NCBI RefSeq assembly: GCF_000300235.2
Contig: NZ_CP004388.1
Location: 3,914,001 to 3,978,000 of the forward strand
Source: Thalassospira xiamenensis M-5 = DSM 17429
GTDB taxonomy: Bacteria > Pseudomonadota > Alphaproteobacteria > Rhodospirillales > Thalassospiraceae
Length of the DNA: 64,000 bases
Direction of reading: 5' to 3'
In this document: positions 38,090-64,000 of the stretch, piece by piece
Layout of the letters: each line of letters begins with the position of its first letter
How positions within the stretch are numbered: the first letter of the stretch is position 1
Program-made: the position numbers and the translations under genes
The notes under the pieces: generated by a model
Told to the model about the DNA's origin: nothing
Databases searched by the model: none
What the model saw: the letters and a program-made list of their open reading frames with translations, nothing else

Positions 38090-38374
38090 GGATGGCAATA
38101 CTCCGAGATTTGGGACAGCGCCAATCTGGCAGACGAAAATGTCAAATTGGTTAAACCCCGCAATTTTTCCCAGAAACCATCACAATCCGGCCAAAGTATA
38201 ATGGCAGCGGCACGCCATTAATATCCGTTCATCAATCTCGTCCTTGGCAGAAAACAACCATTTTTCAGAAGGATAACGTTACGGAATGCTGATGGATGAC
38301 CGCGACATTGACCTAAATAGGTATTTCCATGCCTATTTACGTAATTATGGGCGGGTGCTATAAACACCGCCATG
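38090..38374. other. Upstream region of the mutase operon
   Basis: This stretch separates the receiver gene from the riboswitch. It holds an inverted repeat AAATAGG...CCTATTT at 38315-38338 and, at 38350-38371, a hairpin GGCGGGTG/CACCGCC with one bulge. The mutA promoter is probably here. No coding frame with a ribosome site was found. Confidence 0.5.
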
Positions 38375-38535
38375 TCGCAGATGCGATATGAAACATTCTT
38401 TCGGGAATTCGGTGCGGTCCGGCGCATGTCCGCGATCAAGGCCGAAGCTGCCCTCGCAACTGTAAATGCGCCGTTTTTGGCGGCGCATAAGCCAGATACC
38501 GAAAGATGGCTCTTGTTTCTGCCGGACCGGGCGGG
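38375..38535 (+). promoter_or_regulatory. Compact cobalamin riboswitch upstream of mutA
   Basis: The leader matches the cobalamin aptamer core in order: GGGAATTCGGTGC (38403-38415), GCTGCCCTCGCAACTGTAA (38447-38465) and the B12 box AAGCCAGATACC (38489-38500). P1-like pairing is possible between GCAGA (38377-38381) and TCTGC (38518-38522). GGTCCGGC (38416-38423) is exactly complementary to GCCGGACC (38521-38528), suited to the L5-L13 kissing contact. Only one short hairpin (38466-38488, ATGCGCC/GGCGCAT) separates the ACTGTAA element from the B12 box, so the large peripheral arm of class I cobalamin riboswitches is absent. No intrinsic terminator is visible before mutA. Confidence 0.85.
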
Positions 38536-38614
38536 GTGTACCGGGCGGAGGGAATCCGTTGTAAAATAGATATCGGCCCAGATCCGAAAGATCCGACCGC
38601 GACCGGGAGAGAGC

Positions 38615-40678
38615 ATGACAGACCCGTTAAAGCTGGCCTCAGAGTTTCCAGCCGCCGATTATGCAAGCTGGCGTCAACTGGCGGAATCCGGCCTGAAAGG
38701 CGCATCCTTTGACAAGAAACTGGTCACAAGGATGCTTGACGGTTTCGCGATGCAGCCGCTTTACACCAACGACGATCAGGACGACGCAACCCGCCTGATC
38801 CATCAGGTCCTGTGTGCCGCGGTCGATGCCAAGGACGCCGCCAGCGGCTGGGACATCCGCCAGCTTCATGCCCATCCCGATCCCAAATCGGTCAATGCCG
38901 CGATTCTCGATGATCTGGAAAACGGCGCAACGTCGGTCCTGCTACGTCTGGATGCCGCCGCACGCACGGGCGCGGATATCACATCGGGCGATGCTGGCAT
39001 TGACGGCATTGCCATTCACTGCCTTGCCGATCTCGATGCCACACTTGACGATGTCTATACCAACCTTGCGACCGTTGCACTTGATGCCGGTGCCGCCGCA
39101 ATCCCGGCCGCCGCCCTTTTGGCCGCGCGCCTTGAAAAGGATGGGCAAAACAGCGCCGACGCGGATGACGATTTTGCAAGCGACGCCGCACCGGCCTTCA
39201 ACATCGATCCGATTGGCACCTTGGCCGCAACAGGGTGCCTTCCGGTTTCAGTCGATGATGCGATCAAACAGGCCACCGATATTGCCGCTGATCTGATCGA
39301 CCGTTTCCCGCATGCCACCGCCATCACGGTAAATGGCGCGCCGTTTTACAATGCCGGTGCAACCGATGGGCAGGAACTCGCCTGCCTGCTGGCAGGTGGT
39401 GTGACCTACCTTCGCGCGCTGACCGATACCGGTATGGTGATTGATCAGGCGGCAGGCGCGATTGCGTTCAATGTGGCGGTTGGCACCGATTTCTTTGCCG
39501 GGATTGCCAAGCTTCGTGCGCTTCGCCTGATGTGGAGCCGGGTTCTTTCGGCATCGGGTGTCGATGATGCCACTATCACGATCAATGCGGTATCGGCCGA
39601 AATGTCGCTGTCGAAGGTTGATCCGTGGGTCAATATGCTGCGCACCACCGTCACCAGCCTGAGCGCCGGTCTGGGCGGTGCCGATAGCGTTATCTGCCTG
39701 CCCTATGATCATCTGATCGGCCTGTCTGATGGCTTTGCGCGCCGCATTGCGCGCAACACCCAACTGATCCTTCAGGAAGAAAGCAACGTTCATCGTGTGA
39801 TCGACCCGGCGGGCGGTTCATGGTTCATCGAAAACCTGACCCGCGAACTGGCATCCAATACCTGGGGCCGGTTCCAGTCACTTGAAGCCAAGGGCGGCAT
39901 TATCAAGGCCCTTGCCGACGGGTCCCTGCAAAAGGAGATTTCGGAAATCTGGCAGGCCCGCGAAAGCCGCGCTGCCACCCGGCGCGATCCGCTGACCGGC
40001 GTGTCGGAATTCCCCAACATCACAGAGGCCAAAGTCACCTGCGATGCGCCAGACCTGACGACAATTCGCAAGGAAGCCAAAGCCCGCCAGACCGGGTTTA
40101 AGGATGCAATCGGCATCAGCCTTGAGGATCTGATCACGGCGGCCAAATCCGGTGCAACCATCGCACAGATGTATGAAGCCCTTTATGGCAAGGCCGCGGG
40201 CACACATATCGATCCGCTGCCAACCCATCGTCTTTCGGAAAGTTTCGAAACCCTGCGGGATCGTGCGGATGGCCACAAGGCATCAACCGGCAAATTTCCG
40301 CAAATCTTTCTGGCCAATCTGGGCCCGGTTGCCAAACATACCGCGCGCGCCATGTTTGCCCGAAACTTCTTCGAAGCTGGCGGGATCGAGGCGATTACCA
40401 ATAACGGCTTTGCCGATGCCAGCGATGCCGCCAAGGCATTTGTTGAAAGTGGTGCCAGGATCGCAGTCATTTGCGGATCGGACCCGCAATATGCCGAAAT
40501 GGCCGCCGATGCCGCCAAGGCCCTTAAACAGGCCGGGGCGACCCGCATTTACCTTGCCGGGCATCCCGGCGATGCGAGGGCCGATTACGAGGCGGCGGGT
40601 ATTGATGATTTCATTTTTATCGGGGCGGATGTTCTTGCGATCTGCGAGACGGCCCTTTCACATCTGGGGGTAAAATAA
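38615..40678 (+). CDS. mutA: Methylmalonyl-CoA mutase small (beta) subunit
   Basis: The 687-residue protein is the non-catalytic partner in the heterodimeric mutase that interconverts succinyl-CoA and (R)-methylmalonyl-CoA. The TIM-barrel part is clear ([40 protein letters not shown]). The C-terminal domain retains the cobalamin-fold shape but lacks the DxHxxG cobalt-ligand motif, as expected for this subunit. GGGAGAGAG precedes the ATG. The gene lies directly behind the cobalamin riboswitch and two bases before mutB, so both subunits are made from one message. Confidence 0.95.
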
Positions 40679-40680
40679 CC

Positions 40681-42837
40681 ATGACCCGGATTCCGGACTT
40701 TTCCAATCTGCCGCTGTTTGATCGTGCTACTTCCGGCCCGACCAGCCCGGTCAATACAGCGCCCTGGACCACGCCCGAAGGCATCGATGTCAAAGCGGTG
40801 TTTGGCGCGGATGATCTGGTGGGACTTGATCATCTCAACACCATGCCGGGCATGCCGCCCTTCCTGCGCGGTCCCTATCCGACCATGTATGTCCAGCAAC
40901 CCTGGACGATCCGGCAATATGCCGGTTTTTCGACCGCCGAAGAATCCAACGCATTTTATCGCCGAAACCTCGCCGCCGGCCAAAAGGGCCTGTCGATTGC
41001 CTTCGACCTTGCCACCCATCGCGGCTATGACAGCGACCACCCGCGGGTAACCGGTGATGTCGGCATGGCCGGTGTGGCAATTGACAGCATCTATGACATG
41101 CGGACCCTTTTTGATGGCATTCCGCTCGATCAGATGTCGGTCTCCATGACCATGAATGGTGCGGTCCTGCCGGTGATGGCGCTGTATATCGCGGCTGCCG
41201 AAGAACAGGGCGTGAAACATGAACAGCTTTCAGGCACCATTCAGAATGACATTCTGAAGGAATTCATGGTCCGCAATACCTATATCTATCCGCCGAAACC
41301 CTCGATGCGGATCATTTCGGACATCTTTGCCTTTACCTCGCAAAACATGCCGAAATTCAATTCGATCTCGATTTCCGGCTATCACATGCAGGAAGCTGGG
41401 GCCACGGCGGACCTTGAACTGGCCTATACCCTGGCCGATGGCATCGAATATGCCCGTGCCGGTCAGGCTGCTGGTCTTCCGATTGATAAATTCGCGCCGC
41501 GTCTGTCGTTCTTCTGGGCGATTGGCATGAATTTCTTTATGGAAATCGCCAAAATGCGCGCCGCCCGCATGATCTGGGCCAAGCTGATCAAACAGTTCGA
41601 TCCGCAGAACCCCAAATCCCTGTCACTGCGCACGCACAGTCAGACATCGGGCTGGTCACTGACAGCACAGGATGTATTTAACAACGTCATCAGAACATGC
41701 GTTGAGGCAATGGCATCAACCCAAGGCCACACGCAGTCGCTTCATACCAACGCCCTTGACGAGGCATTGGCCCTGCCGACCGATTTTTCGGCCCGCATTG
41801 CCCGCAATACGCAGCTTTTCCTGCAACAGGAAAGCGGCACGACCAAGGTCATCGATCCGTGGGGCGGGTCCTATTATGTTGAACGTCTGACCCGTGATCT
41901 GGCGGAAAAGGCATGGGCCCATATTCTTGAGGTCGAAGAACAGGGCGGCATGGCCAAGGCGATTGAAGCCGGCATTCCGAAAATGCGCATCGAAGAAGCG
42001 GCTGCGCGCACACAGGCCCGCATCGATAGCGGCCGACAGACACTGGTCGGTGTGAACAAATACCGTGCTACCGATGATCGCCCGGTCGATGTTTTGCAGG
42101 TCGATAATGCCGAAGTCCGCCGTCAGCAGATCGCCAAGCTGGAACGTCTGCGTGCCGAACGCAACAATGCGGATGTTGAAGCCGCCCTTACCGCCCTGAC
42201 CAATGCCGCCGATCAGGGGAATGGCAACCTTCTTGATCTTGCCGTGCAGGCCGCCCGGTCGAAATGCACGGTGGGCGAGATTTCCGACGCGCTTGAAAAG
42301 GTTTATGGCCGTCATCAGGCGGTGATCCGGTCAATTTCGGGGGTCTATAAAACCGAAGTCGGTGCCGATAACGAAGCACTGGCCAAGGTTGACCGGCTGG
42401 TAAACGAGTTCGAACAATCCGAAGGCCGCCGCCCGCGCATCCTGATTGCCAAAATGGGGCAGGACGGGCATGACCGCGGCCAGAAAGTCATCGCAACCGC
42501 CTTTGCCGATCTTGGCTTTGACGTCGATATCGGCCCGCTGTTCCAGACACCCGAAGAAGCCGCGCGGCAGGCGGTTGAAAACGATGTCCATATCGTCGGT
42601 GCCAGTTCGCTTGCAGCCGGTCACCTGACACTCGTGCCGCAGCTTCGTGCGGAACTGGACAAGCTTGGCCGCGAAGACATCATGATCGTTGCCGGTGGTG
42701 TTATCCCACCGCAGGACTTTGACAAACTTTACGAAGCCGGGGCAGAGGCGATCTTCCCGCCGGGAACCGTGATTGCCGAAGCGGCCTGTGACCTGTTAGA
42801 AAAGCTGAAGGAATCAACGTCCGAGGAAGCGGCCTGA
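40681..42837 (+). CDS. mutB: Methylmalonyl-CoA mutase large (alpha) subunit, cobalamin-binding
   Basis: The 718-residue catalytic subunit binds adenosylcobalamin. The barrel has [18 protein letters not shown] and a substrate region [20 protein letters not shown]. The C-terminal cobalamin domain has [16 protein letters not shown], with His597 as the lower axial cobalt ligand, followed by [16 protein letters not shown]. It is cytosolic and works in propionyl-CoA use and C4/C3 interconversion. Downstream, meaB (17 bp) supplies its G-protein chaperone. Confidence 0.98.
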
Positions 42838-47788: not shown

Positions 47789-48030
47789 TCAGGTGCCGAA
47801 CCCGAAATCATCAGCATCAAGATCATCGGTATCATGGACGCCCATCAGGGTGACAGACGCATCATTGCCAAGTTCAATCACGACATTGCCATCGGTATCA
47901 AGATGCATGTCATTTTTGATCTGGTTGAAATTGCTGTAATTCCATTCCGACAGATTGATGATGTCCTCGCCCGGCGTGAAGTCGGTGATGATGTCGTGAC
48001 CGTTGGTTTTGCCGATCTCGAATTCATCCC
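47789..48030 (-). other. Module A9: C-terminal secretion-signal-like domain of the RTX protein
   Basis: The last ~80 residues run from [17 protein letters not shown] to the end ([11 protein letters not shown]), with ending [18 protein letters not shown]. Type I secretion substrates commonly end in such a calcium-roll-capping segment. Eight internal relatives lie at about 49866-50113, 50750-51000, 54160-54400, 56185-56430, 58470-58715, 59805-60050, 62135-62375 and 63065-63320. Confidence 0.75.
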
Positions 48031-51000
48031 AGCCCGAACCACCGGTCAGGGTATCGTCACCGGCACTGCCATACAGTCGGTCGTTGCCTGCACCGCCCAG
48101 AAGCACATCGTCACCCGAATTGCTCCAGAGGATGTCATTGCCGTTGCCACCATCCAGCGTAACATTGTCATAGGTTTCATAGGAGCTGGTCAGATCGATG
48201 ATGTCATCGCCATCACCGGCCTCGATCACCTCGATATTGCGGATGCGCGGCGAAATGCCCGGATCGCTGACCGTATCGGCAAGGAATAGCGCGTCATTAC
48301 CGCTGGTCAGTTTCAGGGTATCGGTGCCATCGCCACCTTCGAAGATGTCATTCGACTGGTTATAGCCGTTCAGATTGACATATTCGCCAGTCCCGGAATC
48401 GCCACTGTAATCATGGCCCCAACCGTTACCGTGATGGCCGGTATGGCCCCAGCCGGTATTGTTGTCATGGCCGTCTTCGCCCGGCGCGCCATCATTAAGC
48501 GCATGCCAGTTCGAGCTCCAGGTGTCGTCGGCATTGTATTGCAGAACGTCATCACCCGCACCACCATTCAGGATGTCGATCCCGGCACCACCGGCAAGAG
48601 TGTCATTGCCCGCACCACCCCAAAGCGTGTCGTTGCCTTCGCCGCCATCAAGGACGTCGTCACCGGCGTTGCTCCAGATGATGTCATTGCCGGTTCCGCC
48701 AAGAACTGTCACATCGCCATAAGACTGGGTTTCGCTGGTCAGGTCGACGATGTCGTCGCCATTACCGGCATCGATGACTTCGATATTCGAAATGCGCGGC
48801 GAAACGCCCGGATCGGTGATCTTGTCGTCAAGGAACAGGGCATCATTGCCGCTGGTCAGGGACAGGGTATCGGTCCCATCGCCACCGTCGAAGATATCCT
48901 GCGAACGGGTATAGCCTTGCAGATTGATCTGTTCGTTGGTGCCGTCCATATCCGGATCGCCGACATTCTTTGCGGCATAGCTGCCCGACCAGGTCGCGTC
49001 TTTCTGATATTCGATGACGTCATCACCGGCACCGGCATCGATCAGATCGCTGCCCGATCCGCCATTGATGACGTCATTGCCATCGCCCCCCCAGATGGTG
49101 TCATTACCGCCATCGCCGCCCAGAACGTCATCGCCCGACAGGCCCGACAGCAGGTTCGCACCGTCATCGCCAAACAGATAATCGTTGAAGTTCGACCCGA
49201 TCAGATCTTCGATCGAAGACAGAACGTCATATCCGTCACCACCAACGGCGGTACCGTTTTTCAGGCTGACACCAACCGCGGATGTTGCATTGGCATAGCT
49301 TGCGGTATCGCGGCCCGATCCACCCGAAAGGGTATCGTTGCCCTGACCACCCATCAGGGTGTCATTGCCGCCATCACCATAAAGCTTGTCATCGCCCGAT
49401 CCGCCGAACAGGGTATCGTTGCCTTCGCCGCCCCACAGGCGGTCGTTGTTTTCGCCGCCATCCAGAACGTCGTTACCGTCCCCGCCAAGGATCGAGTCAT
49501 CACCGGTGCCGCCGTTGATCACGTCATTGCCGGCTTCGCCATACAGCCTGTCCTGACCCTGACCGCCCAGCAGCGTATCGGCCCCGTTTCCACCCCAGAC
49601 GCGGTCATCACCCGACCCGCCATCCAGCGTATCGTCGCCTTCGCCGCCGGTGATGCTGTCCTGACCGCTGCCGCCGTCGATAAAGTCATTACCGCCGTCA
49701 CCATACAGCTTGTCGTCGCCATCACCGCCATAAAGGCTGTCATTGCCATCCATGCCCGACAGCGTGTCCTGACCATTCAGGCCAAAGACGGTATCGTCAC
49801 CCGCAAGGGCGGCAATCGTGTCATTGTTGCTGGTGCCATACAGGACATCGTCATAGGGCGTCGGCCCGGTCGAGGCTTCGACACCGACAAACATGTTCGC
49901 ATTAAGATCGCTAATCGCGACACCCAGCAGGGTCAGGGTACCCTGACCATTCAGGTTGATAACGGTGTTGCCATTGACCTCGGACATCAAGCTGCGCAAC
50001 TCGGCCCAGTTATCAACATCAAGCGCAGACAGATTGATCTGGTCACTTGCCCGATTGAAATCGGTGACGACCTTGTCGCCGGAATTATCCGATACGATGA
50101 TCTGATCCGAACCGGCGCCACCGGTATAGGTATCGTTGCCAGCCCCGCCATCAAGCGTATCGTTGCCGTCCCCGCCCAGCAGCGTGTCGTTACCGGCATC
50201 GCCCGACAGGGTGTCGCTTCCGATACCGCCTTCGAGCAGGTCATTGTCATTTCCGCCCGACAGGACATCATTGCCGCTACCACCCGAAAGGGTATCGGCG
50301 CCATCGCCGCCAGAAATGACATCATCACCCGCTTCGCCCGAAAGCTGGTCATCACCGGCCGCGCCATAGATCGTATCGGTATCATCACCGCCGGTGACAA
50401 CATCGTCGCCATCCATCGCATCGATGAAGTCCGAACCGCCACCGCCGGAAATCACATCGTTGCCCGATCCACCGATCAGGGTGTCATTGCCCGCACCACC
50501 CGCGATCACGTCATGGCCGTCATTACCATTCAGGCTGTCGTCGCCATCGCCACCGTCAATCACGTCATTGCCGTTGCCGCCCGAAATCGTATCGTTCCCG
50601 GCACCACCCGACAGGTTATCGTCGCCGTCATTGCCAAGGATGGTGTCATTGCCATCCCCACCATCGACCACGTCATTCCCGGCAAGCGCATCGATATAAT
50701 CATCTTCGCTGGTGCCCAGCAGGACATCATCAAACGGCGTCGCGCCAACAGGGCCTTCGATGCCGACAAACATATCGGACGTGACTTCGTTCAGGCGCAC
50801 ACCCAGCAGCGTGACCGAGCCATCCGGGCCCAGATCGATCACGGTATTGCCATTGACCTGACTCAGACGCGGGGCCAGTTCGGACCATTCGGAAATGCCA
50901 AGGGCATCAAGGGAAATCTGATCAACGCTTGTGTTGAAATCGGTAACAACCTTGTCGCCGACAAGGCTTGTGACCTTGACCAGATCGGCACCCGACCCGG

Positions 51001-54000
51001 TCGAGATCCGGTCATTCCCCGATCCGCCATCCAGCGTATCGTTGCCATCGCCGCCCACAAGGCTGTCATTACCAGCCCCACCGTCAAGCGTGTCGTCGCC
51101 TTTTTCGCCGTTCAGATAATCGTTGCCATTGCCACCGATCAGGGTATCGGCGCCATCGCCGGTCCAGATCGTGTCATTGCCTTCGCCGCCATCGACTGTA
51201 TCGGCACTGACATCGGCTTCGACATTGTCAAACGTATCGTTGCCATCGCCCAGATCGACAACGTTGTTCTGGCTGTTGCCATAGACATAGTCATCATGCG
51301 CCGACGCAATGACGCGTTCGAAATTGGCAAGAATATCGCCCGCGGCATCACCGCCAAACGCACGGCCACCTTCGCCCGGTGCTCTGGCATTGCCATCGGT
51401 ATCGCCAAGATAAATCTCGACCCCGGCGCTTGAACCCTCATAGCTGATGGTATCAATGCCATCGCCACCATCAAGCGTATCGGCACCCGCACCGCCTTCG
51501 ATGGTGTCATCCCCGGCACCGCCCGAAAAGACGTTATCGCCATCCGATCCGGTAATGTCGTCATTGCCCGCCGATCCGATGACATTTTCAAAACCGGAAA
51601 TAGTGTCGTTGCCGGTTTCGGCACTGCTTGCGGTACCGGCCGACAGATCGACCGTGGCACCACTTGCCGCCTGTGTCAGGTCAAGGGTATCGGTGCCCGC
51701 ACCACCCGAAAGCGTATCATTCCCGGCACCGGCGATAATGGTGTCGTTACCGGCCCCGCCATAAACGGAGTCATCACCCGCACCGCCGTCCAGAACGTCA
51801 TCACCATCCGCACCAGACAGGACGTTTGCCCCGCTCGATCCGATAAGCGTATCCGCCCCCGCCGTGCCCAGAACATTCTCGAAGCCGGAAATGGCGTCCG
51901 TACCGGTGGCATCGCTGCTTGCGGTGCCGGTCGACAGGTCAACCGTCACACCATTGGCGGCAGCGAAATCAAGGGTGTCGGTGCCATCACCACCGGCAAG
52001 GATATCGTTGCCCGCACCGGCAACAACCGTGTCATCACCCCTACCCGCATCAACCGTATCTGCACCGGCACCTGCGGTGATGACGTCATTGCCATCGCCC
52101 GCCAGAATAACGTCGTCGCCCGCCCCGGCATCAAGGGTATCGTTACCAGCACCCCCGTCCAACGTATCATTGCCTGCCCCGCCATAAAGGCGATCAGCAC
52201 CGTCGCCGCCAGTCAGGATGTCATCACCATCGCCACCATCGAGCATGTCGTTGCCGATACCACCATCAAGGGTATCGTTGCCGCCATTGCCGATCAGGCT
52301 GTCATTGCCCGCACCGCCCGAAAGCAGGTTATCGCCATTCGATCCGGTCAGGGTGTCGCTGCCGCCCGAACCAATCAGGTTTTCAATGCTGGTCAGGGTG
52401 TCTTCTTCGCCATTGGCAAGCTGTGCGGTACCGGTTGCAAGGTTCGCACGAACCGCCGCGGCCGAATTGCTGTAATCCGCCGTATCGTTGCCATCACCAC
52501 CGCGCAGCGCATCATTCCCGGCACCACCCGAAAGGGTGTCATCACCAGAACCGCCATCCAGCGTGTTGTTCTGCGCATCCCCCCTGATGATGTCATCATG
52601 GGCAGATCCGACAACGTTTTCGACCCAGTAGATGCCGTCATTCCCGGCACCACCCGTTGCGGTGTAATTGGCCAGATCGACATTCACGCCCGATGCCGCG
52701 TCGTCATAGGTCACGGTATCGATGTCACCACCTCCATGGATGATATCGTCGCCTTCACCACCGCGAAGCGTATCGTTACCCGCACCACCGATCAGCGTAT
52801 CATTGCCTTCGGCACCATCAAGGACATCACGGCCATAACCACCATCAAGATAGTCGTCACCCGCACCGCCATAAAGATTGTCGTCGCCAAGTTCGCCATT
52901 GATGCGGTCATTGCCTTCATTGGCCCAAAGCGTATCGTTGCCGCCGCCACCATTGATGGTGACATCGCCATAGGCAATCGTATCGCTGGTCAGATCGACA
53001 ACGTCATTGCCTTCGCCCGCGTTGATAACCTCGACGCCGTCAAGGCGCGCGCCGTCGGTGACAGTTTCTTCGACCACCGCATCAAAGGTGATGGAACGCA
53101 CGAAATAGTCGCTGCTGTCACCACCCGATGAACCATCGGCGTAAGGTTCGCTTTCGAAGGCGAGGTAACGGAATTCAACCGGATTGCCGAGACTGTCGGT
53201 AACACTGATCGTTGCCGTGCCGACACCGCCACTGGTGTAACTGATCGTGCTTTCGTCAAGCACACCCGATGCCACCAGATTGCCATCGGCATCAAAGGCC
53301 TGCCACGAACCGACTTCGCCGCCATGTTCGGCCGCGATCAGGTTGGAAACCTGAACCTTGGCATTCCGCGCATTGGCACCAAGATCGACAACAACGGCTT
53401 CGCTTTCGCCGGTATTGCCATTGTGGTTGATCTGGCTTCCGGCCGGTGAACCGCCGTTATTGCCAATACCGTTGCCATCAAAGGTCACGGTGTCATCGGC
53501 CGCGGCAAGGTTCAGTTTGCCGTCTTCACCGACATAGGATGTGCCAAAATCAAAGGCATAAAGATTTGCATCCGACCATGCGGCCTGCACGGCACCCGAT
53601 GATGCCGAATCCGTCAGGCCCAATGTCCGGGTTTCAATCGTGCTACCCGTCGTCTGGCCATCGCCCAGTTTGCTGCCATCAAGGATCAGCGCATCACTGC
53701 CACCGGTCAGGTTCAGGGTATCGGTACCATCACCACCGACAAAGGTATCGTCCGAGATGTTCTTGCCACCGATATCGGCAAGATCGCCGGTACCATCGAC
53801 GCCCGGGCTGCCGGTATTTTCGGTGGTGTCACCGCTTGCGCCCGTGCCATCGGCTTCAAAGTTCAGGACATCGTCGCCAGATCCACCATCAAGGGTGTCG
53901 TCACCCGATCCACCCGAAAGCGTATCCGCACCATCGCCGCCACTCAGTTCATCATTGCCGGTGCCGCCGCCAAGCGTATCCGAACCGGTCCCGCCATCGA

Positions 54001-57000
54001 CCGTGTCATCGCCCGAACCACCCGTCAGGGTATCGTTGCCCGCACCACCATCAATCGTGTCATCACCGGCACCACCATCGACAACATCGTCACCGGCAAG
54101 GGCATCAATGACATCATCGCCATCGCCGCCGGTCAGGCTGTCGTCATAAGGCGTCCCGCCATCGGTAACCCCGGTGAAATCATCGGCTGAAAGATCAAGC
54201 GGATTGACACCTTGCAGCGTGATCGTGCCGCCGGACGGCAGATTGATCACCGCATCACCAAGCGAATTGCCGGTGATCAGATCACGAAGCTGGGTCCAGG
54301 TTTCAATGCCCGTGCCATCAAGGGTCAGCTTGTCGGTCCCGACTTCAAAGTCGGTGACAACATCATCATCGGTGCCATCGGCAAAGATAAAGCTGTCATT
54401 GCCAGCCCCGCCCGAAAGCGTATCGTCGCCAGCCCCACCATCAAGGGTGTCGTTACCCGCTCCTGCGGCCATGACGTTATTGGCGTCCGATCCGGTCAGT
54501 TCATCATAGCCCGAACCGGTTGTGACATTTTCAAAGTTCGAAATGCTGTCCGAACCGGTTTCCACCGATTGCGCCGAACCTGCTGCCAGATTGACCGTGG
54601 CACCATTGGTTGCGTTGCGCATGTCGATGGTGTCATTACCCTGGCCACCATCAAGACTGTCATCACCGGCACCCGCGATAACCGTGTCATCGCCCGCACC
54701 GGCATCGACATAGTCACTGCCTGCACCATCAGACACGACATCATTGCCGTCACCGGCCACGATCCGGTCATTGCCATCGGCACCGTCAATCGTATCGTTT
54801 CCTGCGCCGGACGATATGGTGTCATCGGCGGAACTTCCGGAAATCGTATCGTCACCAGCACCCGTAACGACCTGTTCAAAGCCCGAAATGGTATCAGAAC
54901 CGGTTTCCGTGCTGCTTGCCGTGCCATTTTCAAGATCAATGACGGCCCCGCCATCGGCATTGGTCAGATCAAGCGTATCGGTGCCATCGCCACCGGCAAG
55001 AATATCATTCCCGGCATCACCGATAACGCTATCGTCACCCGCACCGGCATCGACCGTATCATTGCCATCACCCGACGAAATCACATCGTTGCCGTCACCC
55101 GCAGCAATCACATCATCGCCAGAACCCGCCGCGATATCGTCATCACCCGCCCCGGCGTCAATCACGTCACTGCCAGAACCCGTATTGATATGGTCATTGC
55201 CATCACCGGCAAGGACGCTGTCATCCCCGGCACTGGTCCAGATGGTATCGTTGCCAGCCCCGCCATCAACCGTGACATCGCCATAGGAATGCACCTGGCT
55301 GGTCAGATCGACAACGTCATCACCGTCGCCGGTTTCAATGATTTCAACGCCACTGATTGACGGATTGGCAGCACCATTTTCATGATCGCGATCCAGAATG
55401 ATCGCATCACCGCCCGACGTGCCCACCAGCGTATCGATGCCGTCACCGCCATCATACTGATCATCACTGACGCCAAGCCCGTCAAGATCGGCAATTTCGC
55501 CGGTGCCATCGACACCCGGACTGCCCGCATGATCGGTGGTATCACCCGATTGGCCGGTGCGATCCGCGCCAAATTCCAGAACGTCATCACCCGCACCACC
55601 GGCAAGCGTATCCGTGCCAGGCCCGCCGATCAGGGTGTCGTTGCCGTCACCACCGTCGAGCGTGTCATCACCATCCCCGCCATCAACCGTATCGTCCCCG
55701 GCACCACCACCAACAGTGTCGTTACCAGCACCACCACCGACGGAATCATTACCATCACCGCCATCGACCGTGTCATTACCGTCGCCACCGTCGACCGTGT
55801 CGTTACCGGCACCACCGCCAACACTGTCATCGCCCGTGCCGCCACCAACGGAATCATCTCCGTCGCCGCCATCGACCGTGTCATTGCCATCGCCACCGTC
55901 GACCGTGTCGTTACCGGCACCACCGCCAACGCTATCGTCGCCCGATCCGCCACCAACGGAATCATCACCGTCGCCGCCATCGACCGTGTCATTGCCATCG
56001 CCACCGTCGACCGTGTCGTTACCGGCACCACCGCCAACACTGTCATCGCCCGTGCCGCCACCAACGGAATCATCGCCTTCGCCGCCATCGACCGTGTCAT
56101 CACCATCGCCACCGTCGACCGTATCGTTGCCATCACCGGCACCAACCGTATCGTCACCGCTGCCACCGCCAAGTGTATCATCACCCGGCGTTCCGACATT
56201 TTCGATTCCGGCAAAGTGATCCGGCGTCAGGTCGCCAACAGCAACACCCGAAAGCGTTACCGTGCCACCGGAAGGCAACGTGATCACCGCACCATCCGGA
56301 CCATCGGACAGAATCGACTGCAATTCGGTCCAGCTTGTAACACCGATATCGGGCAGGGAAATCACATCGCTGGCAAGATCAAAGTCACTGACCAGATCGG
56401 CATCGCTGCCATCCTCAAAAACAAAGACATCCGCGCCATCGCCACCGGTCAGGGTGTCGTTGCCGTCACCTGCGGCCAATGTATCATTGCCCGCACCGCC
56501 CGAAAGGACGTCGTCGCCAGCCCCGCCATCGATCACGTCATCACCAGCACCACCATCAATCGTGTTGGCCGCATCATTGCCGGTAATGGTATCGGCATCT
56601 GCCGAACCGGTGACATTTTCGAAATTGGCAATCGTATCGGAACCGGTTTGCGCACCATTCGCCGTACCAGCGGCAAGATCAACCGTTACCCCGCCACTAG
56701 TGCCCGACAGATCAAGCGTATCAATGCCGTCGCCGCCATCAAGGTGATCGTTACCGGCATCAATCGAAACCGTATCGTTGCCTGCACCGGCATCAATCAC
56801 ATTGTTCGCGGCATTACCGGTGATGGTGTCATCACCATCCGTCGCGATCACATTTTCAAAGCCGGAAATGCTGTCCGAGCCAGTGGCATCGCTGCTTGCC
56901 GTACCATTGGCCAGATCAATTTCCGCGCCATTGGCCGCAGACATATCAAGCGTATCGGAACCGTCACCACCCGAAAGCGTATCATCGCCGATACCGGCCA

Positions 57001-60000
57001 TGATCGTATCGTCACCGGCACCGCCCGCGATGATGTCATTCCCGGTTCCGCCATCAAGGATGTCGTTATCAGCACCCCCATCGATATTATCGGCACCCGC
57101 ACCGCCCAGTATATTGTCAGAACCGGCACCACCAAGGATGACGTCATCACCATCATTGGCCCAAAGGGTATCGTCACCGGCACCACCATCAATCGTGACG
57201 TCACCGTAAGAATGCGTTTCACTGGTCAGGTCGACAACATCGTTACCCGCACCGGCATTGATGTTTTCAATATCCACAATCGACGGGTTGGCGGCACCGC
57301 CACCGGCGTGATCGCGATCCAGAATGATGGCATCATCACCGTCGCCTGCCTGCAGGGTATCGTTGCCTTCGCCACCGACAAAGCTGTCATCAGAAAGGTT
57401 TTTGCCACTGATATCGGCGACGTCACCGGTGCCATCCGTCGTCGGGCTGCCGACATGGTCGGTGGTTTCACCCGACGCCGCGACATGGTCCCCGTCGAAG
57501 GTCAGGACATCATCACCGGCCCCACCGTCAAGCAGATCGGCCCCGGCGCCACCGGCAAGGGTGTCGTTCCCTGCACCGCCCGAAAGGGTGTCATCACCCG
57601 CACCACCCGAAAGGATGTTATCGCCATCCGATCCCAGAAGGGTATCGTTGCCCGAACCACCGGTCGCCCCTTCGATATCGATCAGCGTATCGTTGCCATC
57701 GCCGGTCGTGCCGGTCCCCGCGGCCAGATCGACCACAACCGGATCGGTCCGATCCGAATAATCGGCGATATCGGTGCCATCGCCACCGACAAGGGTATCA
57801 CTGCCGGTACCCGCCTGCAGGGTATCGTTACCCGCCCCGCCCAGAATGGTGTCATCGCCCGCACCACCGGCCAGCACATCATCCCCGGCACCGCCTTCGA
57901 TCACGTTGTTGGCATCATCGCCCGAAATGGTATCGGCATGGTCGGACCCGATCACGGTTTCAAAACCGTCAATCACATCATTTCCGGCACCACCGGTTGC
58001 GGTACCATTGGCAAGGTCGACGGAAACGCCTTCTTCGGCCCCTTCGTAGGACAGCGTATCATCGCCTTCGCCGCCAATCAGGGTATCGTCGCCGCCATTG
58101 CCATAAACTGTGTCGTTGCCTGCGCCGCCATCCAGGATATTGGCGTTTTCATCGCCGATCAGGATATCGTCGCCATTCCCGCCGATGACATTTTCGATGC
58201 TATCAAGGGTATCGTTTCCGGCTTCACCGGTTGCGCTACCTGTGCTCAGGTCAATGGTGACACCTTCGGATGTGTCGGAATAATCGGCGGTATCGTTACC
58301 GTCACCGCCATTCAGTTCGTCATCACCGGCACCACCGGTCAGGGTATCATTGCCCGCATCACCATTGATGACATCATCCCCGGCACCGCCATCAACAACA
58401 TCGTCACCGTCCAGTGCATTGATTTCATCGCCAAGCTGGCTGCCCTGCAGGACATCGTCAAATTCGGTGCCGTTGATCGCGACATAACCAAAGAAGTTTT
58501 CAGGACCAAGGTCCTCGACCGAAATACCTTCAAGCGTGATGGTTTCACCGGGTGCCAGATTTATAACGGCATTCCCATCAGCATCATTAAACATGCGATC
58601 TTCAAGATCGCTGTATGTTTCGATACCATATGCAGACAGATCGACAACGTCTTTGGACGGATCAAAATCGGTAACGGTGTCACTGCCACCACCCGGCGCA
58701 ACAACAACCACATCCTCGCCTGCACCCGTGATGACGATGTCATCGCCCGCACCGCCGGACAATGTATCGTTACCCGAACCGCCATCAAGCGTATTGACGC
58801 CATCCGAGCCAATCAGCGTATCGGCAAAATCGGTTCCGACAACATCTTCGATATTCAAGATGACATCGTTGCCCGCGGTACCGCTGGCATATTTATTCAT
58901 CAGATCGACGACAACCGGACCATTCACATTCGAATAATCGACCGTGTCGTGATAACCGCTTTCGCCATCAATGATATCGTCCCCGGAGTCCCCCATGATC
59001 CGGTCGTCGCCAGTACCGCCAAGAAGAATATCATCCCCATCGCCACCAGATAGCGTGTCATCATCAGCACCAGCAACAATGACGTCGCCACCGTCTCCGC
59101 CGGACAGCGTATCCTGCCCCGTGCCACCATCAATCTTGTCGTTACCAGCACCACCTTCGACAACGTCATTACCATCGCCAGCAACAATGGTGTCATCCCC
59201 GCCACCGGCGATGATAGTGTTTGCGTCTGCATTGCCAACGATATTGTCGGAGAAATCCGTCCCGACGACGTTTTCGATACTTTCAAGAAAATCATTGCCC
59301 GCGCCAGAACCGGAACGGTTTGCCAGATTGACATCAATACCCTGATTTGTGGCGCTGTAATCTACCGTATCGCTGCCTGCACCACCGACGATGTGGTCAT
59401 CACCCAGTCCGGCAAAAATGGTATCATCCCCGTCAAGCCCGAGAATGGTATTGTTTCCGGCATCATCGTAGAACACATCGTCAAACAGCGTGCCGGTAAC
59501 ATTCTCGATGCTTTCAAGTCTATCATTGCCGTCCGCACCGGCAACGCTACCCGCACCGATATCGGCAACAATCGCCCCACTACTTGTGGAGTAGTCAGCC
59601 GTATCCGACCCGTCACCGCCGACAAGCGTATCGTCGCCCGCTTCGCCAGCCAGAACATCGTCACCGGTATCGCCATAAAGCGTATCGTTACCATCACCAC
59701 CGATAAGACGATCATCGCCGTCACCGCCATGGACAACATCATCACCGCCAAGCGCATTGATAACATCGTCGTTCACGGAGCCCGGCATATCATCATTTTC
59801 GCCCGTACCAAGACGAACGTCGACACCGCTGAAATTACCACTTTCCAGCATTTCAGGACGAACATCATTCAATGTGACGCTGTCGCCGGTGTCGAAACGA
59901 ATGACGACATCACCCGCGTCGTTGGTATCAAACAACAGCTTCAGGGCATCAAACCCCGCAATGTTGAAGCCGGTCAGATCCAGAACATCGGTAACCGGAT

Positions 60001-63000
60001 CAAAATCCGTGACAACATCATTGCCGCTACCGGGGCCAAAAACGATCCGGTCATTACCCTTACCAGTCGAAAGGGTATCGTCGCCTTCGCCCCCGCGGAA
60101 CGTATCGTTTCCTTGACCGCCAAGGAAAATATCGTTGCCTTCGCCACCGACGAAGGTGTCGTTGAAATCAGAACCCTCGACGATTTCAATACCGTCAAGG
60201 CTATCTGTCCCCTCGTTCGCAGATACGACGGTTCCCGCATTCATATCCACAATGACCGCGCCGGTTGCATCGGCGTAGGATGCCGTATCCTGACCAGATC
60301 CGCCTTTCAGGACATCATTACCCGCACCGCCGACAAGCACATCATTGCCCGCACCGCCATCAAGCGTATCGTCGCCGTCACCGCCAAAGACGGTATCATC
60401 CCCCGCACCGGAGTTGACCGTATCATCCCCCGCGCCGGTTTTGATCACATTGTCATTTTCATCACCGGTAACGCTGTCTTTACCGGCACCGGTCAGGATG
60501 TTTTCAATATTTGCAAAGCTGTCAATTTCATTGCCAGTCGTGGCCTGCCCCGCCACCATATCGACGACGCTGTCATCTGTCAGATCAGACAGATCAAAAG
60601 TATCATTCCCGTCGCCACCGTCGATAACGTCATTGCCCAGACCACCGCGGAGCGTATCGTTACCCTCGCCCCCCGAAAGGACGTCATCACCGGACCGTCC
60701 ATCGACGAAATCGTTACCCGCACCCGCTGCAATCGTATTTGCGCCAGCATCACCCAAAAGCTCATCAGAAGCGGTCGAGCCGACAATGTTTTCAAAATTC
60801 CGGATAACGTCACTGTCCGAACCACTTGCTTGTCCGGATTGAAGATCAACACTCACACTACCTGTCGACGACGCATAAGAAACGGTATCTTCGCCGCTGC
60901 CGCCATCAAGTGTGTCACGACCAGCTCCACCTTCTATGGTGTCATTGCCAGCCCCGCCCATCAGATGATCGTTGCCAGCCCCACCGGTCAAAATATCATT
61001 CCCGGCGCCGCCATCCACACTTACTGCATTGTTTCCGGCGGCAAATACATCGTCAAAATCGGATGCAATGATACTCTCAAAACCACTGATCATGTCGGTT
61101 CCGATATCGGCACCACTTGCCGTACCGACATCAAGATCAATGTTCAGACCAGACCCGGAACCGCTATAATCAAGGGTATCTTTTCCACGTCCGCCATCAA
61201 GGACATCATTTCCGGCATCGCCATAAACGGTATCATCACCATCACCTGCAGCAATGGTGTTGTCATCGGTATCGCCCCTCAGTTCATCCGAATGCGATGA
61301 ACCAATAATATTTTCGATATTCGCAAGGGTGTCATTACCGTCTGCCCCCGTCGCGGTTTCCGCACCAAGATCAACGGAAACGGATCCATCCGCCTGAGCA
61401 TAGCTTACGGTGTCGCCCTCGGCACCACCGTCCAGAACGTCATCGCCACGGCCACCTATCAAGGTGTTTTCGCCGTCATCCCCGATCAGGGTATCGTCAA
61501 AATCACTGCCGATTACATTTTCGATATTTGCAAGCGTGTCGTTACCGTTCGCGCCAGTCGCCGTTCCCGCACCAATGTCAACGAACACCGCACCGTCAGC
61601 ATCGCCATAGGTTGCGACGTCACGCCCCTCGCCGCCATCCAGAATGTCGTTTCCTGTGCCGCCAAGAAGAGTATCGTCCCCTGATCCGCCTTCCAGGGTG
61701 TCATCGCCAGCGCCACCATCAAGATGATCGTCATCCATCCCGCCCAGAAGATGATCCTTCCCGCCCAGACCGCGCAAAGTATCGTCCCCGGCCTCGCCGG
61801 ATAAGATATTGTCACCCTCATCACCGGAAATCCGGTCCTGCCCCTTGGCGCCAATAACGTTTTCAACGTCGATCAGAACATCATTGCCAACCGAAGAATC
61901 CGCTGTTCCCGCGGCCAGATCGACAGTTACGGATAAATTTTGACTATAATCTGCAGTATCATTGCCCACGCCACCATCCAGCGTGTTCTGGCCAGTGCCG
62001 CCTGACAGCGTGTCATCCCCGGCACCGCCATAGATGATATCGTCACCTCCGGCCCCGTCGATCGTATCATTGCCATCAAGACCATCGATTATTTCGCCAA
62101 ATCCGCTGCCGACAATTGTGTCATCAGCTTCGGTCGCGCCGATGAATTTGATGTCGACAAAATGATCCGGGGTCAGGTCTTCGGGCGCAATGCCGGTTAA
62201 TGTGATCTTGCTTTGTCCAAGGTCGATAACCGTCCCGCCGTTGCCGTTCGAGACAATCATCTTCCGTAAGGCTTCCCAGGTCGGAACACCAAAGGCCGAA
62301 AGATTCAGACGATCTGCAGAAAGATCAAAATCAGCAATGGTATCGACACCAGACCCGGGCGCGAACACGAAGGTATCAGCTCCTTCACCGCCAACCAGAA
62401 GATCGTTTCCGCCGCCGCCAATGATAAGATCATCGCCCGCACCACCTTCGAGCGTATTGGAAATCAAAGATCCGATGATCGTGTCATTGCCGTCAGAACC
62501 GATAACGTTTTCGATACCGTTCAGATGACTGGTTCCGCTCTCGGTCGTTGCAGAACCCTCGTCAAGATCGACCGAAACCCCACCATCGATACCATCATAT
62601 GTAATGGTATCTTTGCCTGCACCGCCCAGAAGGCTGTCATTTCCGGCCCCTGCAATCAGGGTGTCATCGCCAGCACCACCATCGAGAAGATCATCCCCCG
62701 CGCCCCCTGAAAGGGTGTCGGCACCCTCTCCGCCCAGAAGAGTATTGTTTGCATCATTCCCGGAAATCACATCATCAAAGTCAGAACCCGTAACATTGTC
62801 GATGTTGGCAAGTGTATCGTTGCCCGCGCCACCCGACGCGTTACCTGCCGCCAGATCGACCTGCACCCCCGCAACGGCATCGTCATAAGCAACGGTATCA
62901 TTACCATCACCACCATCGATCAGGTCATTGCCCAGACCACCAGAAAGCGTGTCGTCGCCTTCCCCGCCAAACAATGTGTCGTCGCCATCCATGCCAAGAA

Positions 63001-64000
63001 TGGTGTCATTCCCGGCCAAACCATCGATGACATCACCAAGCGAAGTACCGATCAAAACATCGGCATTTTCCGTACCCTCAAGTGACCGAATGCCAACGAA
63101 ATTCGAATATTTCAGCATATCTGGCGATATGCCGAGCAACGTCATGGTCGCATCGCCAAGCGAAATCGTCGTATTGCCCGCTTCATCAACACCGACCAAC
63201 CCGGCAATATCGGAAAGCAAACCAACGCCATCGATCCCCTGAACATCAATCATATCCAGTTCCGGATCGAAATCAGTCACGGTGATCTGACCGTCGTTTG
63301 CGGAAATCACAAAGGTATCGCCGCCCGCACCACCGGTCAGCGTATCGTTACCGCCTCCACCGGAAAGCGTGTCATCACCGGCATCGCCAAGCAGGGTGTC
63401 GTCACCGGCACCGCCAAGCATAACGTCGTTACCAGCGCTACCCTTGATCGTTTCGAAACCGTCAATCGTGTCAACAAAGGTGGAACTGGTAACGGTGCCT
63501 GCATCCAGATCAAAGGTAAGCCCGGTATTGCTCTGACCTGAGCCTTTTACTGACTCATAACTCAGAACATCGTTACCATCGTCACCCGATAGCGTGTCCG
63601 ACCCAAAGCCGCCCAGAACAGTGTCATCACCCGCCCCTGCAGCAATGATATTGTCAGACGATGTACCTGAAATCACATCATTGCCATCACCGGTGACGAC
63701 ATTTTCAAATCCCGTAAATTCATCCGTCCCCATGCCGGATGCCGTTCCCGCCGCAAGATCAATCGTCATATCGGCAGAAAATTCGCTATAGTCGACGGTG
63801 TCGGTTCCTTCTCCACCGATGAAGGTGTCGTCGCCCCCGCTGCCAAGAACCGTATCGTCAGAACTTCCGGCATCTATAATATTTTTGCCACTGTCGCCGC
63901 GAATGATATCGGCTTGGCCCGAACCGGTCACATTTTCGATATTTTCCAGCGAAACAGTGCCGGACGCGTTTTTTGCGTATCCCGCGGAAAGATCAATCTC
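47789..64000 (-). CDS. Giant RTX calcium-binding protein (C-terminal part; 5' end outside window)
   Basis: One frame stays open from the right edge to a TGA at 47791-47789, over 5,400 codons. At the edge it is still inside a repeat (EIDLSAG...), so the start is outside the window. Most of it is GGxGxDxLx nonapeptides, which form calcium-bound beta-rolls. Interspersed are blocks of [20 protein letters not shown] linkers and nine copies of an about 80-residue module (VTDFDxxxDxIxLS...VTLxGV), the last of which forms the C terminus and resembles a type I secretion signal. Acidic, Cys-free and huge, it should be exported through a type I system and act as a surface adhesin or matrix protein. No transporter genes are in the window. 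Antisense frames here are shadows. Confidence 0.95.
48105..48560 (-). other. Module B5 with His-rich insert in the RTX protein
   Basis: This is one of five copies of a second, non-RTX module ([10 protein letters not shown]...DALFLAD...[13 protein letters not shown]...IDLTS..YDNVT...ILWSN). It carries an extra loop at about 48390-48485 with seven His and many Gly/Trp/Asn ([18 protein letters not shown]) absent from the others. Other copies: about 48650-49030, 52905-53885, 55225-55590, 57145-57515. Confidence 0.7.
53045..53660 (-). other. Unique inserted beta-rich domain in RTX module B3
   Basis: About 200 residues with no RTX repeats interrupt the third B module, starting near [16 protein letters not shown] and ending near [15 protein letters not shown]. 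The composition (alternating Val/Ser/Thr strands, [26 protein letters not shown]) suggests a beta-sandwich, perhaps ligand binding. No known family was assigned with confidence. Confidence 0.6.
55761..56192 (-). repeat. 108-bp tandem repeat, four copies
   Basis: A near-identical unit starts at 55761, 55869, 55977 and 56085 (landmark CCATCGACCGTGTCAT), giving a period of exactly 108 bp. That is 36 residues or four RTX nonapeptides ([20 protein letters not shown] pattern). The high DNA-level identity, including synonymous positions, indicates recent expansion. Confidence 0.88.

What the first reader, a model, noticed from the sequence alone, without database searches (positions are those of the whole stretch)
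38375..38614. Cobalamin riboswitch in front of a cobalamin-dependent enzyme operon
All core elements are visible (GGTGC, GCTGCCCTCGCAACTGTAA, B12 box AAGCCAGATACC, plus an 8-bp perfect L5-L13-type complement), directly upstream of mutA-mutB-meaB. Established cobalamin riboswitches mostly repress cobalamin synthesis, uptake or cobalamin-independent isozymes when the vitamin is plentiful. Repressing a mutase that needs the vitamin would be counter-productive, so this one may act as an ON switch or respond to a different cobalamin form. No intrinsic terminator is visible between aptamer and ATG.
Basis: partly seen in the sequence, partly recalled or inferred. Interest (0 to 1): 0.78.

Follow-up and report, generated by a model that had tools for sequence, protein, structure and literature searches.

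The report
Vitamin B12 riboswitch before methylmalonyl-CoA mutase
A vitamin B12-sensing RNA element sits in front of the genes of an enzyme that itself needs vitamin B12, and its predicted folding suggests that it turns the enzyme on, rather than off as such elements usually do, when the vitamin is present.

Summary
The cobalamin riboswitch is real: Rfam RF00174, window 38356-38522, 38.2 bits against a cut-off of 31.5, before mutA-mutB-meaB. The host is a Thalassospira. 26 of 29 genomes of the genus have it before mutA, against 0 of 23 other mutA loci found in the order. It is compact, without the P7-P11 extension, and most of its closing helix covaries. This fits a translational ON switch in which P13/L13, or in the window's clade the end of the closing helix, doubles as anti-Shine-Dalgarno. 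Nothing was measured; one boundary was moved after seeing results; the sign is inferred. The one activating corrinoid riboswitch that I read of is transcriptional and on a biosynthesis gene (PMC10653944). Verdict: new variant of a known kind, sign to be tested.

The parts
38315..38338 (.). 24-bp palindrome AAATAGGtATttccATgCCTATTT overlapping the -35 element; probable operator of an unknown regulator
   Evidence: Only exact match of the palindrome pattern in the genome; the six other places have 2 mismatches (shorter form). The 26-bp form, one position allowed A/G, is in 29 of 29 leaders examined
38336..38364 (+). Promoter: TTTACG, 17 nt, TATAAA with TGC before it (extended -10); start of transcription estimated near 38371
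   Evidence: TTTAC[GT]-N17-TATAAA and TGCTATAAA in 29 of 29 leaders, also the 3 without an aptamer. The generic scan did not call it. Start site inferred, not mapped.
38390..38404 (+). 5' strand of the closing helix (outer 38390-38395, inner 38397-38404)
   Evidence: Covarying pairs across 26 leaders; inner 8 bp perfect in the window
38356..38522 (+). Cobalamin riboswitch aptamer as called by Rfam
   Evidence: RF00174 38.2 bits
38452..38457 (+). L5 part of the presumed kissing loop, CCUCGC
   Evidence: Complementary to L13 GCGGGG; CCCCGC in 20 of 26 leaders, CCUCGC in 5, shortened in 1
38490..38500 (+). B12-box-like segment AGCCAGATACC (J6/3)
   Evidence: Rfam alignment; AG[UC]CAG in all 26
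38499..38519 (+). 3' strand of the closing helix (inner 38499-38506, outer 38514-38519)
   Evidence: Covariation
38517..38525 (+). Predicted anti-Shine-Dalgarno of the window's clade, UUCUgCCGG; shares 38517-38519 with the closing helix
   Evidence: Pairs with 38603-38611 when P13 is enforced but this stretch is left free; 9 of 182 other RBSs pair as well or better with the linker region
38527..38544 (+). P13 hairpin CCGG-GCGGGGUGUA-CCGG with L13 (38531-38536)
   Evidence: CGGGCGG[G/A]GUGUACCGG in 26 of 26 leaders
38603..38617 (+). Ribosome-binding site CCGGGAGAGAGC and start AUG of mutA (38615)
   Evidence: CCGGGA in 28 of 29 leaders (26 of 26 with the aptamer)
38615..40678 (+). mutA, methylmalonyl-CoA mutase small subunit
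   Evidence: TIGR00642, 488 bits, below its 617-bit cut-off, E 3e-146
40681..42837 (+). mutB, methylmalonyl-CoA mutase large, B12-binding subunit
   Evidence: NF006944, 1327 bits
42854..43939 (+). meaB, mutase-associated GTPase
   Evidence: NF006958, 486 bits

Best explanation
It is a compact cobalamin riboswitch that works as a translational ON switch for mutAB-meaB. Without ligand, the stretch from the end of the closing helix through P13/L13 is free to pair with the ribosome-binding site and start codon, and translation is low. In most of the genus the sequestering strand is P13/L13 itself; in the window's clade it is the 3' end of the closing helix plus the linker before P13. Shown: aptamer, its conservation, helix covariation, promoter conservation, no terminator-like site on the mRNA strand in the four leaders scanned. 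Inferred: ligand, ligand form, kissing loop, sign, translational level.
For: RF00174 before mutA in 26 of 29 Thalassospira genomes. Closing helix with double changes (C-G/U-A, U-A/C-G, G-C/A-U). P13 is complementary to RBS+AUG better than nearly all other RBSs of the genome in 13 of 14 main-clade leaders (0-1 of 182 null RBSs as good; L018 9 of 182), and in L029 (4) and L026/L064/L066 (5). Opening energy of SD-to-AUG falls in the bound-like state in 26 of 26 leaders (window 10.9 to 4.5 kcal/mol) and in 23-25 of 26 with the whole unconstrained leader as the free state at two temperatures and two 3' ends. Swapped-in RBSs reach the native drop in 2 of 120 for the window, and in 6 or fewer of 120 for 13 of 26 leaders. 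The same kind of calculation on 13 DUF4198-type riboswitch leaders of the genus gives a negative sign in 12 of 13 and a positive one in only 2-3 of 13. Two aptamer-deleted leaders (L020, L031) have an open RBS, 3.5-3.6 kcal/mol. Physiology: MutB needs adenosylcobalamin (recalled); all 29 genomes have cobI over cut-off; prpD was not found in the own genome.
Against: The implementation differs between clades, and cognate RBS and anti-SD do not covary clearly. P13-RBS complementarity is not special in the window itself: 61 of 182 null RBSs are as good. My first two-state runs left most of the window's clade without an ON effect (20 of 26 leaders ON by 1 kcal/mol or more, but the window 6.6 to 8.5; window diff -0.2); it appeared for the window only after I moved the boundary to the end of the closing helix, a change made after seeing the result. 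Thirteen of 26 leaders have 8-43 of 120 swaps as large, five of them 19-43 (L017, L018, L021, L024, L029). The calculation ignores pseudoknots, kinetics and proteins, and gives a positive sign also for cbtB (4 of 4) and CbiM-like (3 of 3) leaders, presumably OFF, where P13 lies 3-4 nt from the SD. In plain folding of the window's leader the closing helix has probability 0.04, so the free-state picture depends on the folding model. The third aptamer-less leader, L023, gives 7.0, with a differently placed SD. The 26 leaders are related, not independent.
Confidence: 0.58

Rival explanations
1. It is an ordinary OFF switch: cobalamin lowers mutAB-meaB, for instance to save cofactor or by Rho-dependent termination after occlusion.
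For: Corrinoid riboswitches were all known as repressing until the one activating case of PMC10653944 (passages read). A compact aptamer with a fused P1-P3 arm in another bacterium (ppe2 switch, PMC11260477) is a translational OFF switch (passages read). The early two-state runs gave no ON effect for the window.
Against: P13 ends 56-112 nt before AUG in the 26 leaders, unlike the cbtB and CbiM-like leaders of the genus where P13 is 3-4 nt from the SD; folding gives mostly the opposite sign to DUF4198-type leaders; no terminator-like site on the mRNA strand in four leaders scanned; repression of an enzyme by its own cofactor has no obvious benefit.
Confidence: 0.22
2. The aptamer senses another form (methyl- or hydroxocobalamin, or an incomplete corrinoid) and reports a state other than adenosylcobalamin supply; the sign could then be either.
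For: The aptamer lacks the P7-P11 extension and has a shortened B12 box. Class IIa riboswitches prefer methyl- and hydroxocobalamin (class division as given in PMC11260477); that they are compact is recalled.
Against: MutB uses adenosylcobalamin (recalled), the simplest ligand; class IIb binds adenosylcobalamin (same paper). No tool here can decide.
Confidence: 0.12
3. The riboswitch is vestigial and the operon is run by the palindromic operator over the -35 element.
For: The operator is in 29 of 29 leaders, the aptamer in 26 of 29 genomes; the aptamer was lost at least once (L020+L031 nested in the MutA tree); these aptamers score lowest of all RF00174 matches in the genus (28-54 bits).
Against: Core, L5, P13/L13 and B12 box are kept across MutA proteins down to about 64% identity with the window's, and the closing helix is kept by compensating changes.
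Confidence: 0.08

Closest known systems
Activating corrinoid riboswitch of Alkalihalobacillus halodurans cobT (PMC10653944; abstract and passages read)
   Same: Kissing loop stabilises P13, and P13 is mutually exclusive with the inhibitory structure, so ligand turns expression on.
   Different: There the inhibitory structure is an intrinsic terminator and the gene is a corrinoid biosynthesis gene; here no terminator-like site was found, the RBS is the predicted target, and the gene is a cobalamin-dependent enzyme. Here the sign is only predicted.
M. tuberculosis ppe2 class IIb-like riboswitch (PMC11260477; abstract, introduction and passages read)
   Same: Fused P1-P3 arm, truncated P6 extension, GGAA-type J3/4, L5-L13.
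   Different: It is a translational OFF switch acting on a short upstream ORF; different operon.
[quoted passage not shown] two passages read)
   Same: Riboswitch in front of the same B12-dependent enzyme.
   Different: Only an Rfam annotation in metatranscriptome transcripts; no sign or mechanism in the passages; distant phylum (recalled).
Listeria cobalamin riboswitch controlling an antisense RNA (as cited in PMC11575231, passage read)
   Same: Genes of a B12-using pathway are maximally expressed only with cobalamin.
   Different: Indirect: the riboswitch controls an antisense RNA; here it would act in cis on the RBS.

Membership tests
Cobalamin riboswitch (RF00174) | Covariance-model match over the curated cut-off | tested here: met
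   38.2 vs 31.5 bits; 24 of 26 mutA aptamers in the genus over it, 2 below (30.7 and 28.2)
Cobalamin riboswitch (RF00174) | Conserved core: GGGAA, L5, GCAACUGU, B12 box | tested here: met
   Largely invariant columns over 26 sequences; the B12 box is shortened
Cobalamin riboswitch (RF00174) | L5-L13 complementarity | tested here: met
   6 bp in 25 of 26 leaders (one G-U in 5 of them), weaker in L012; too invariant to covary, so pairing itself is not shown
Cobalamin riboswitch (RF00174) | Binds a cobalamin | not testable with these tools
   Needs in-line probing
Class I (adenosylcobalamin) subclass | Large P6 extension with P7-P11 | tested here: not met
   In the Rfam alignment 9 nt stand against 56 model positions of that part
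Class IIb subclass | No P8-P12 extension, GGAA at J3/4 | tested here: met
   GGGAA kept in 26 of 26; no long P6 extension in the window; definition from PMC11260477
Class IIb subclass | UCU motif in J6/3 and adenosylcobalamin selectivity | not tested
   Motif register not worked out; selectivity needs binding assays
Activating corrinoid riboswitch (A. halodurans cobT type) | Inhibitory structure is an intrinsic terminator | tested here: not met
   0 terminator-like sites in 38200-38800
Activating corrinoid riboswitch (A. halodurans cobT type) | P13 mutually exclusive with the inhibitory structure | tested here: inconclusive
   Predicted in the main clade, L029 and the L026 group; in the window the overlap is with the closing helix and the linker instead
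Activating corrinoid riboswitch (A. halodurans cobT type) | Expression rises with corrinoid | not testable with these tools
   Needs a reporter assay

The most novel reading that the evidence does not exclude
A genus-wide cobalamin riboswitch that activates translation of a cobalamin-dependent enzyme by letting the aptamer's own closing helix and kissing-loop hairpin double as the anti-Shine-Dalgarno: a direct cofactor-present, make-enzyme switch, with the sequestering strand re-invented between clades while the sign is kept.
Probability: 0.5. Interest if true: 0.75.

Novelty: new variant of a known kind. Interest (0 to 1): 0.6.

Why it matters
Cobalamin riboswitches are a textbook feedback device on synthesis, uptake and back-up enzymes. 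One that switches on the cofactor's client enzyme would be a feed-forward use of the same aptamer. It would be the second activating corrinoid riboswitch, and the first translational one, that my searches found. The genus offers 26 natural variants, at least one natural loss (plus one genome whose absence may be loss or original), and presumed OFF riboswitches in the same genomes for direct comparison.

Tried and rejected
A P1 3' strand acting as anti-SD in all clades: strong in 9 of 14 main-clade leaders (0-2 of 182 null RBSs as good; 7-19 in the other five) but not in the T. mesophila clade or L029 (45-85 of 182), and cognate RBSs do not beat non-cognate ones consistently. P13-to-AUG distance as a clean mark of ON versus OFF: rejected, because DUF4198-type leaders have a distant P13 too. 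A second copy of the closing-helix 3' strand at 38584-38591 (8 nt) as the switch partner: only 4-6 nt, or none, in the other 25 leaders and probability 0.01 in the window's ensemble, so left as chance. A terminator: none on the mRNA strand in the window and three relatives; the other 22 leaders with the aptamer were not scanned. A wider family of mutA riboswitches: 0 of 23 order-level mutA loci at Rfam cut-off, and a genus-trained model found nothing in these 23 at E<=1; about 1.5 kb upstream was present in the loci. The class-wide search with that model hit 81 of 289 genomes, 79 outside the genus; I read only the N-termini of downstream ORFs by eye for 28 of these loci, saw ordinary cobalamin or cobalt contexts where recognisable and no MutA. 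That is an incomplete check. The model's consensus structure pairs L5 with P13 as a nested stem, so it is a search aid, not a structure claim.

Rows dropped: L011 (contig ends inside the leader) and the nine non-Thalassospira loci (L032-L040) were left out of the leader set; the three aptamer-less leaders (L020, L023, L031) out of the 26-leader counts. Of 32 riboswitch loci read, the control calculation used the 20 that matched three P13 patterns (13 DUF4198, 4 cbtB, 3 CbiM-like); binding-protein, cobU and ribonucleotide-reductase leaders were not computed. The 32 are the loci that fetched, not all matches of the genus.

Not in print: searched an open-access library for this riboswitch with mutAB, Thalassospira or activation, and I saw listings only unless passages are cited; subscription papers and preprints are mostly not held, so 'first' is a statement about these searches only.

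Full report
What is there. The window lies in a Thalassospira genome: the 29 genomes of its family held here are one genus, and named close relatives of its MutA are Thalassospira. Rfam calls a cobalamin riboswitch at 38356-38522 (38.2 bits, cut-off 31.5). After 92 nt follows mutA, then mutB and meaB. The genome has three more RF00174 matches, which score far higher (68-112 bits) and precede cbtB, a periplasmic binding protein and cobU. In the mutA aptamer 9 nt stand where the model has 56 positions of the P7-P11 part.

Distribution. RF00174 stands before mutA in 26 of 29 Thalassospira genomes, 24 over the cut-off and two below (30.7 and 28.2 bits); the three without are G005, G006 and G026. 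These matches are the weakest of the genus (28-54 bits; the others 65-132). Of 100 genomes drawn from the order, 30 have a mutA match, 23 of them outside the genus; none of the 23 loci has RF00174 at cut-off, and none matches a model trained on the genus at E<=1. In a MutA tree the two aptamer-less leaders L020 and L031 sit next to L029, which has the aptamer, so they are a secondary loss; L023 is sister to the T. mesophila group on a long branch and may be loss or original absence.

Anatomy. I read 29 distinct leaders, 26 with the aptamer. All 29 share a promoter (TTTAC[GT]-17 nt-TATAAA preceded by TGC) and a palindrome over the -35 element. The estimated transcript begins near 38371, so Rfam's outermost pairs, which reach into the -10 element, are probably not transcribed in part; this is inference. 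The closing helix that covaries is 38390-38404 with 38499-38519. In its inner part four positions pair in 26 of 26 leaders, two of them with double changes (C-G/U-A; U-A/C-G), a fifth in 25 of 26 with five pair types, and the last three in only 12, 16 and 20 of 26. In the outer part six positions pair in 25 or 26 of 26, with G-C/A-U and G-C/U-G exchanges, the next in 18 and the last in 0 of 26. I set the register of the outer part by its GUUU motif, which favours pairing there. L5 and L13 can form 6 bp in 25 of 26 leaders. The RBS is CCGGGAG in all 26.

Sign of the switch. The scan found no terminator-like site on the mRNA strand in the window and three relatives, so the expression platform is probably translational. 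I computed the free energy needed to open SD-to-AUG in a free and a bound-like state. The bound-like state keeps the closing helix self-contained, P13 formed and L13 masked. First version: 20 of 26 leaders open by 1 kcal/mol or more and 2 close, the window among them (6.6 to 8.5); with RBS swaps as control 16 of 18 leaders of the main clade, L029 and the L026 group open by 4-7 kcal/mol (L017 1.4, L018 2.7), L021 and L024 by 2.0 and 1.0, and the window's clade by -1.6 to 3.2 (window -0.2). Inspection of pairings showed that my boundary left UUC of GUUUC, the 3' end of the closing helix, free to pair with the SD in the window's clade. With the boundary moved to the end of the helix, all 26 open (window 10.9 to 4.5). 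With the whole unconstrained leader as free state, 23, 23, 25 and 23 of 26 open at 37 or 25 C and two 3' ends (window 7.7 to 4.5 and 8.0 to 5.3 at 37 C). Because leaving sequence out removes partners, I made two controls. Swapping in RBSs of other genes gave a drop as large as the native one in 2 of 120 for the window and in 1 to 43 of 120 over all leaders; 13 of 26 have 6 or fewer. The same kind of calculation on 13 DUF4198-type leaders of the genus, which also have a distant P13, was negative in 12 of 13 and positive in 2-3 of 13 in the four settings. It was positive for 4 cbtB and 3 CbiM-like leaders, in which P13 lies 3-4 nt from the SD and steric OFF control is more likely, so the calculation is not valid for that layout. 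That DUF4198, cbtB and CbiM leaders are OFF is itself assumed from the usual logic of the family. Plain folding of the window's leader gives the closing helix a probability of 0.04; without the ligand the aptamer is not the favoured fold in this model, which fits a switch but also shows how much rests on the energy model.

How it would work. Free: P13/L13 (main clade, L029, L026 group) or the helix end plus linker (window's clade) pairs with the RBS. Bound: closing helix plus kissing loop hold these strands and the RBS opens. In the main clade the RBS resembles the 5' strand of the closing helix (CCGGGAGAAACC with CCGGAAAAC), so both can claim the same 3' strand. In the window's subclade the L4 loop can also pair with the linker (9 nt in the window, 5-6 nt in its four nearest relatives); this may help to free the SD but is not conserved as such.

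Physiology. All 29 genomes have cobI over the cut-off, so cobalamin is probably made in the cell and its level is an internal signal. No prpD was found in the own genome; other methylcitrate genes were not searched.

Literature. PMC10653944 reports the first activating corrinoid riboswitch. PMC3766115 lists four functional categories for cobalamin regulons, and no word beginning with mutase was found in its main text. PMC7160235 notes a cobalamin riboswitch before a mutase gene in Veillonella. PMC11575231 found higher mutase with cobalamin in Xylanibacter but no riboswitch near its genes. In the listings I saw no paper on this leader.

Verdict. A genuine member of the cobalamin riboswitch family in an unusual position. 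The ON sign is the better-supported reading but rests on folding calculations with one choice made after seeing data.

Noticed in passing
38315-38338: 24-bp palindrome over the -35 element of mutA, in all 29 leaders examined, also where the aptamer is lost; the only exact match in the genome. Looks like the operator of a dedicated, unidentified regulator.
   Followed up: partly
L020 and L031, about 114 nt before mutA: Natural deletion of most of the aptamer; the 5' hairpin, GGGAATCCGG and the RBS remain, and the RBS is predicted open. The genus-trained model still finds a weak match in L020 (14.6 bits).
   Followed up: partly
L076-L079, L081, L083-L088, L092, L099: Genes with a cobalamin riboswitch, P13 122-131 nt before the start codon and predicted OFF-type folding. 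The product of L076 is a DUF4198 protein (the others judged by eye). DUF4198 may belong to cobalt or cobalamin uptake.
   Followed up: partly
L074 (similar leaders by eye: L071-L073, L075, L080): In some species of the genus a cobalamin riboswitch precedes a large ribonucleotide reductase subunit with an ATP-cone (family tested for L074 only); the classic back-up-enzyme arrangement.
   Followed up: no
47789-63931, minus strand: A single open reading frame of 5380 codons, a giant protein near the operon.
   Followed up: no
38397-38404, 38499-38506 and 38584-38591: The window's leader has two identical copies of the closing-helix 3' strand CCGAAAGA, the second close to the SD. Relatives do not keep the second copy in full.
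   Followed up: partly
about 38372-38566, plus strand: Read by eye, a frame stays open from an ATG near the estimated transcript start through the whole aptamer; it seems shifted by an extra base in the nearest relatives, so probably chance.
   Followed up: no
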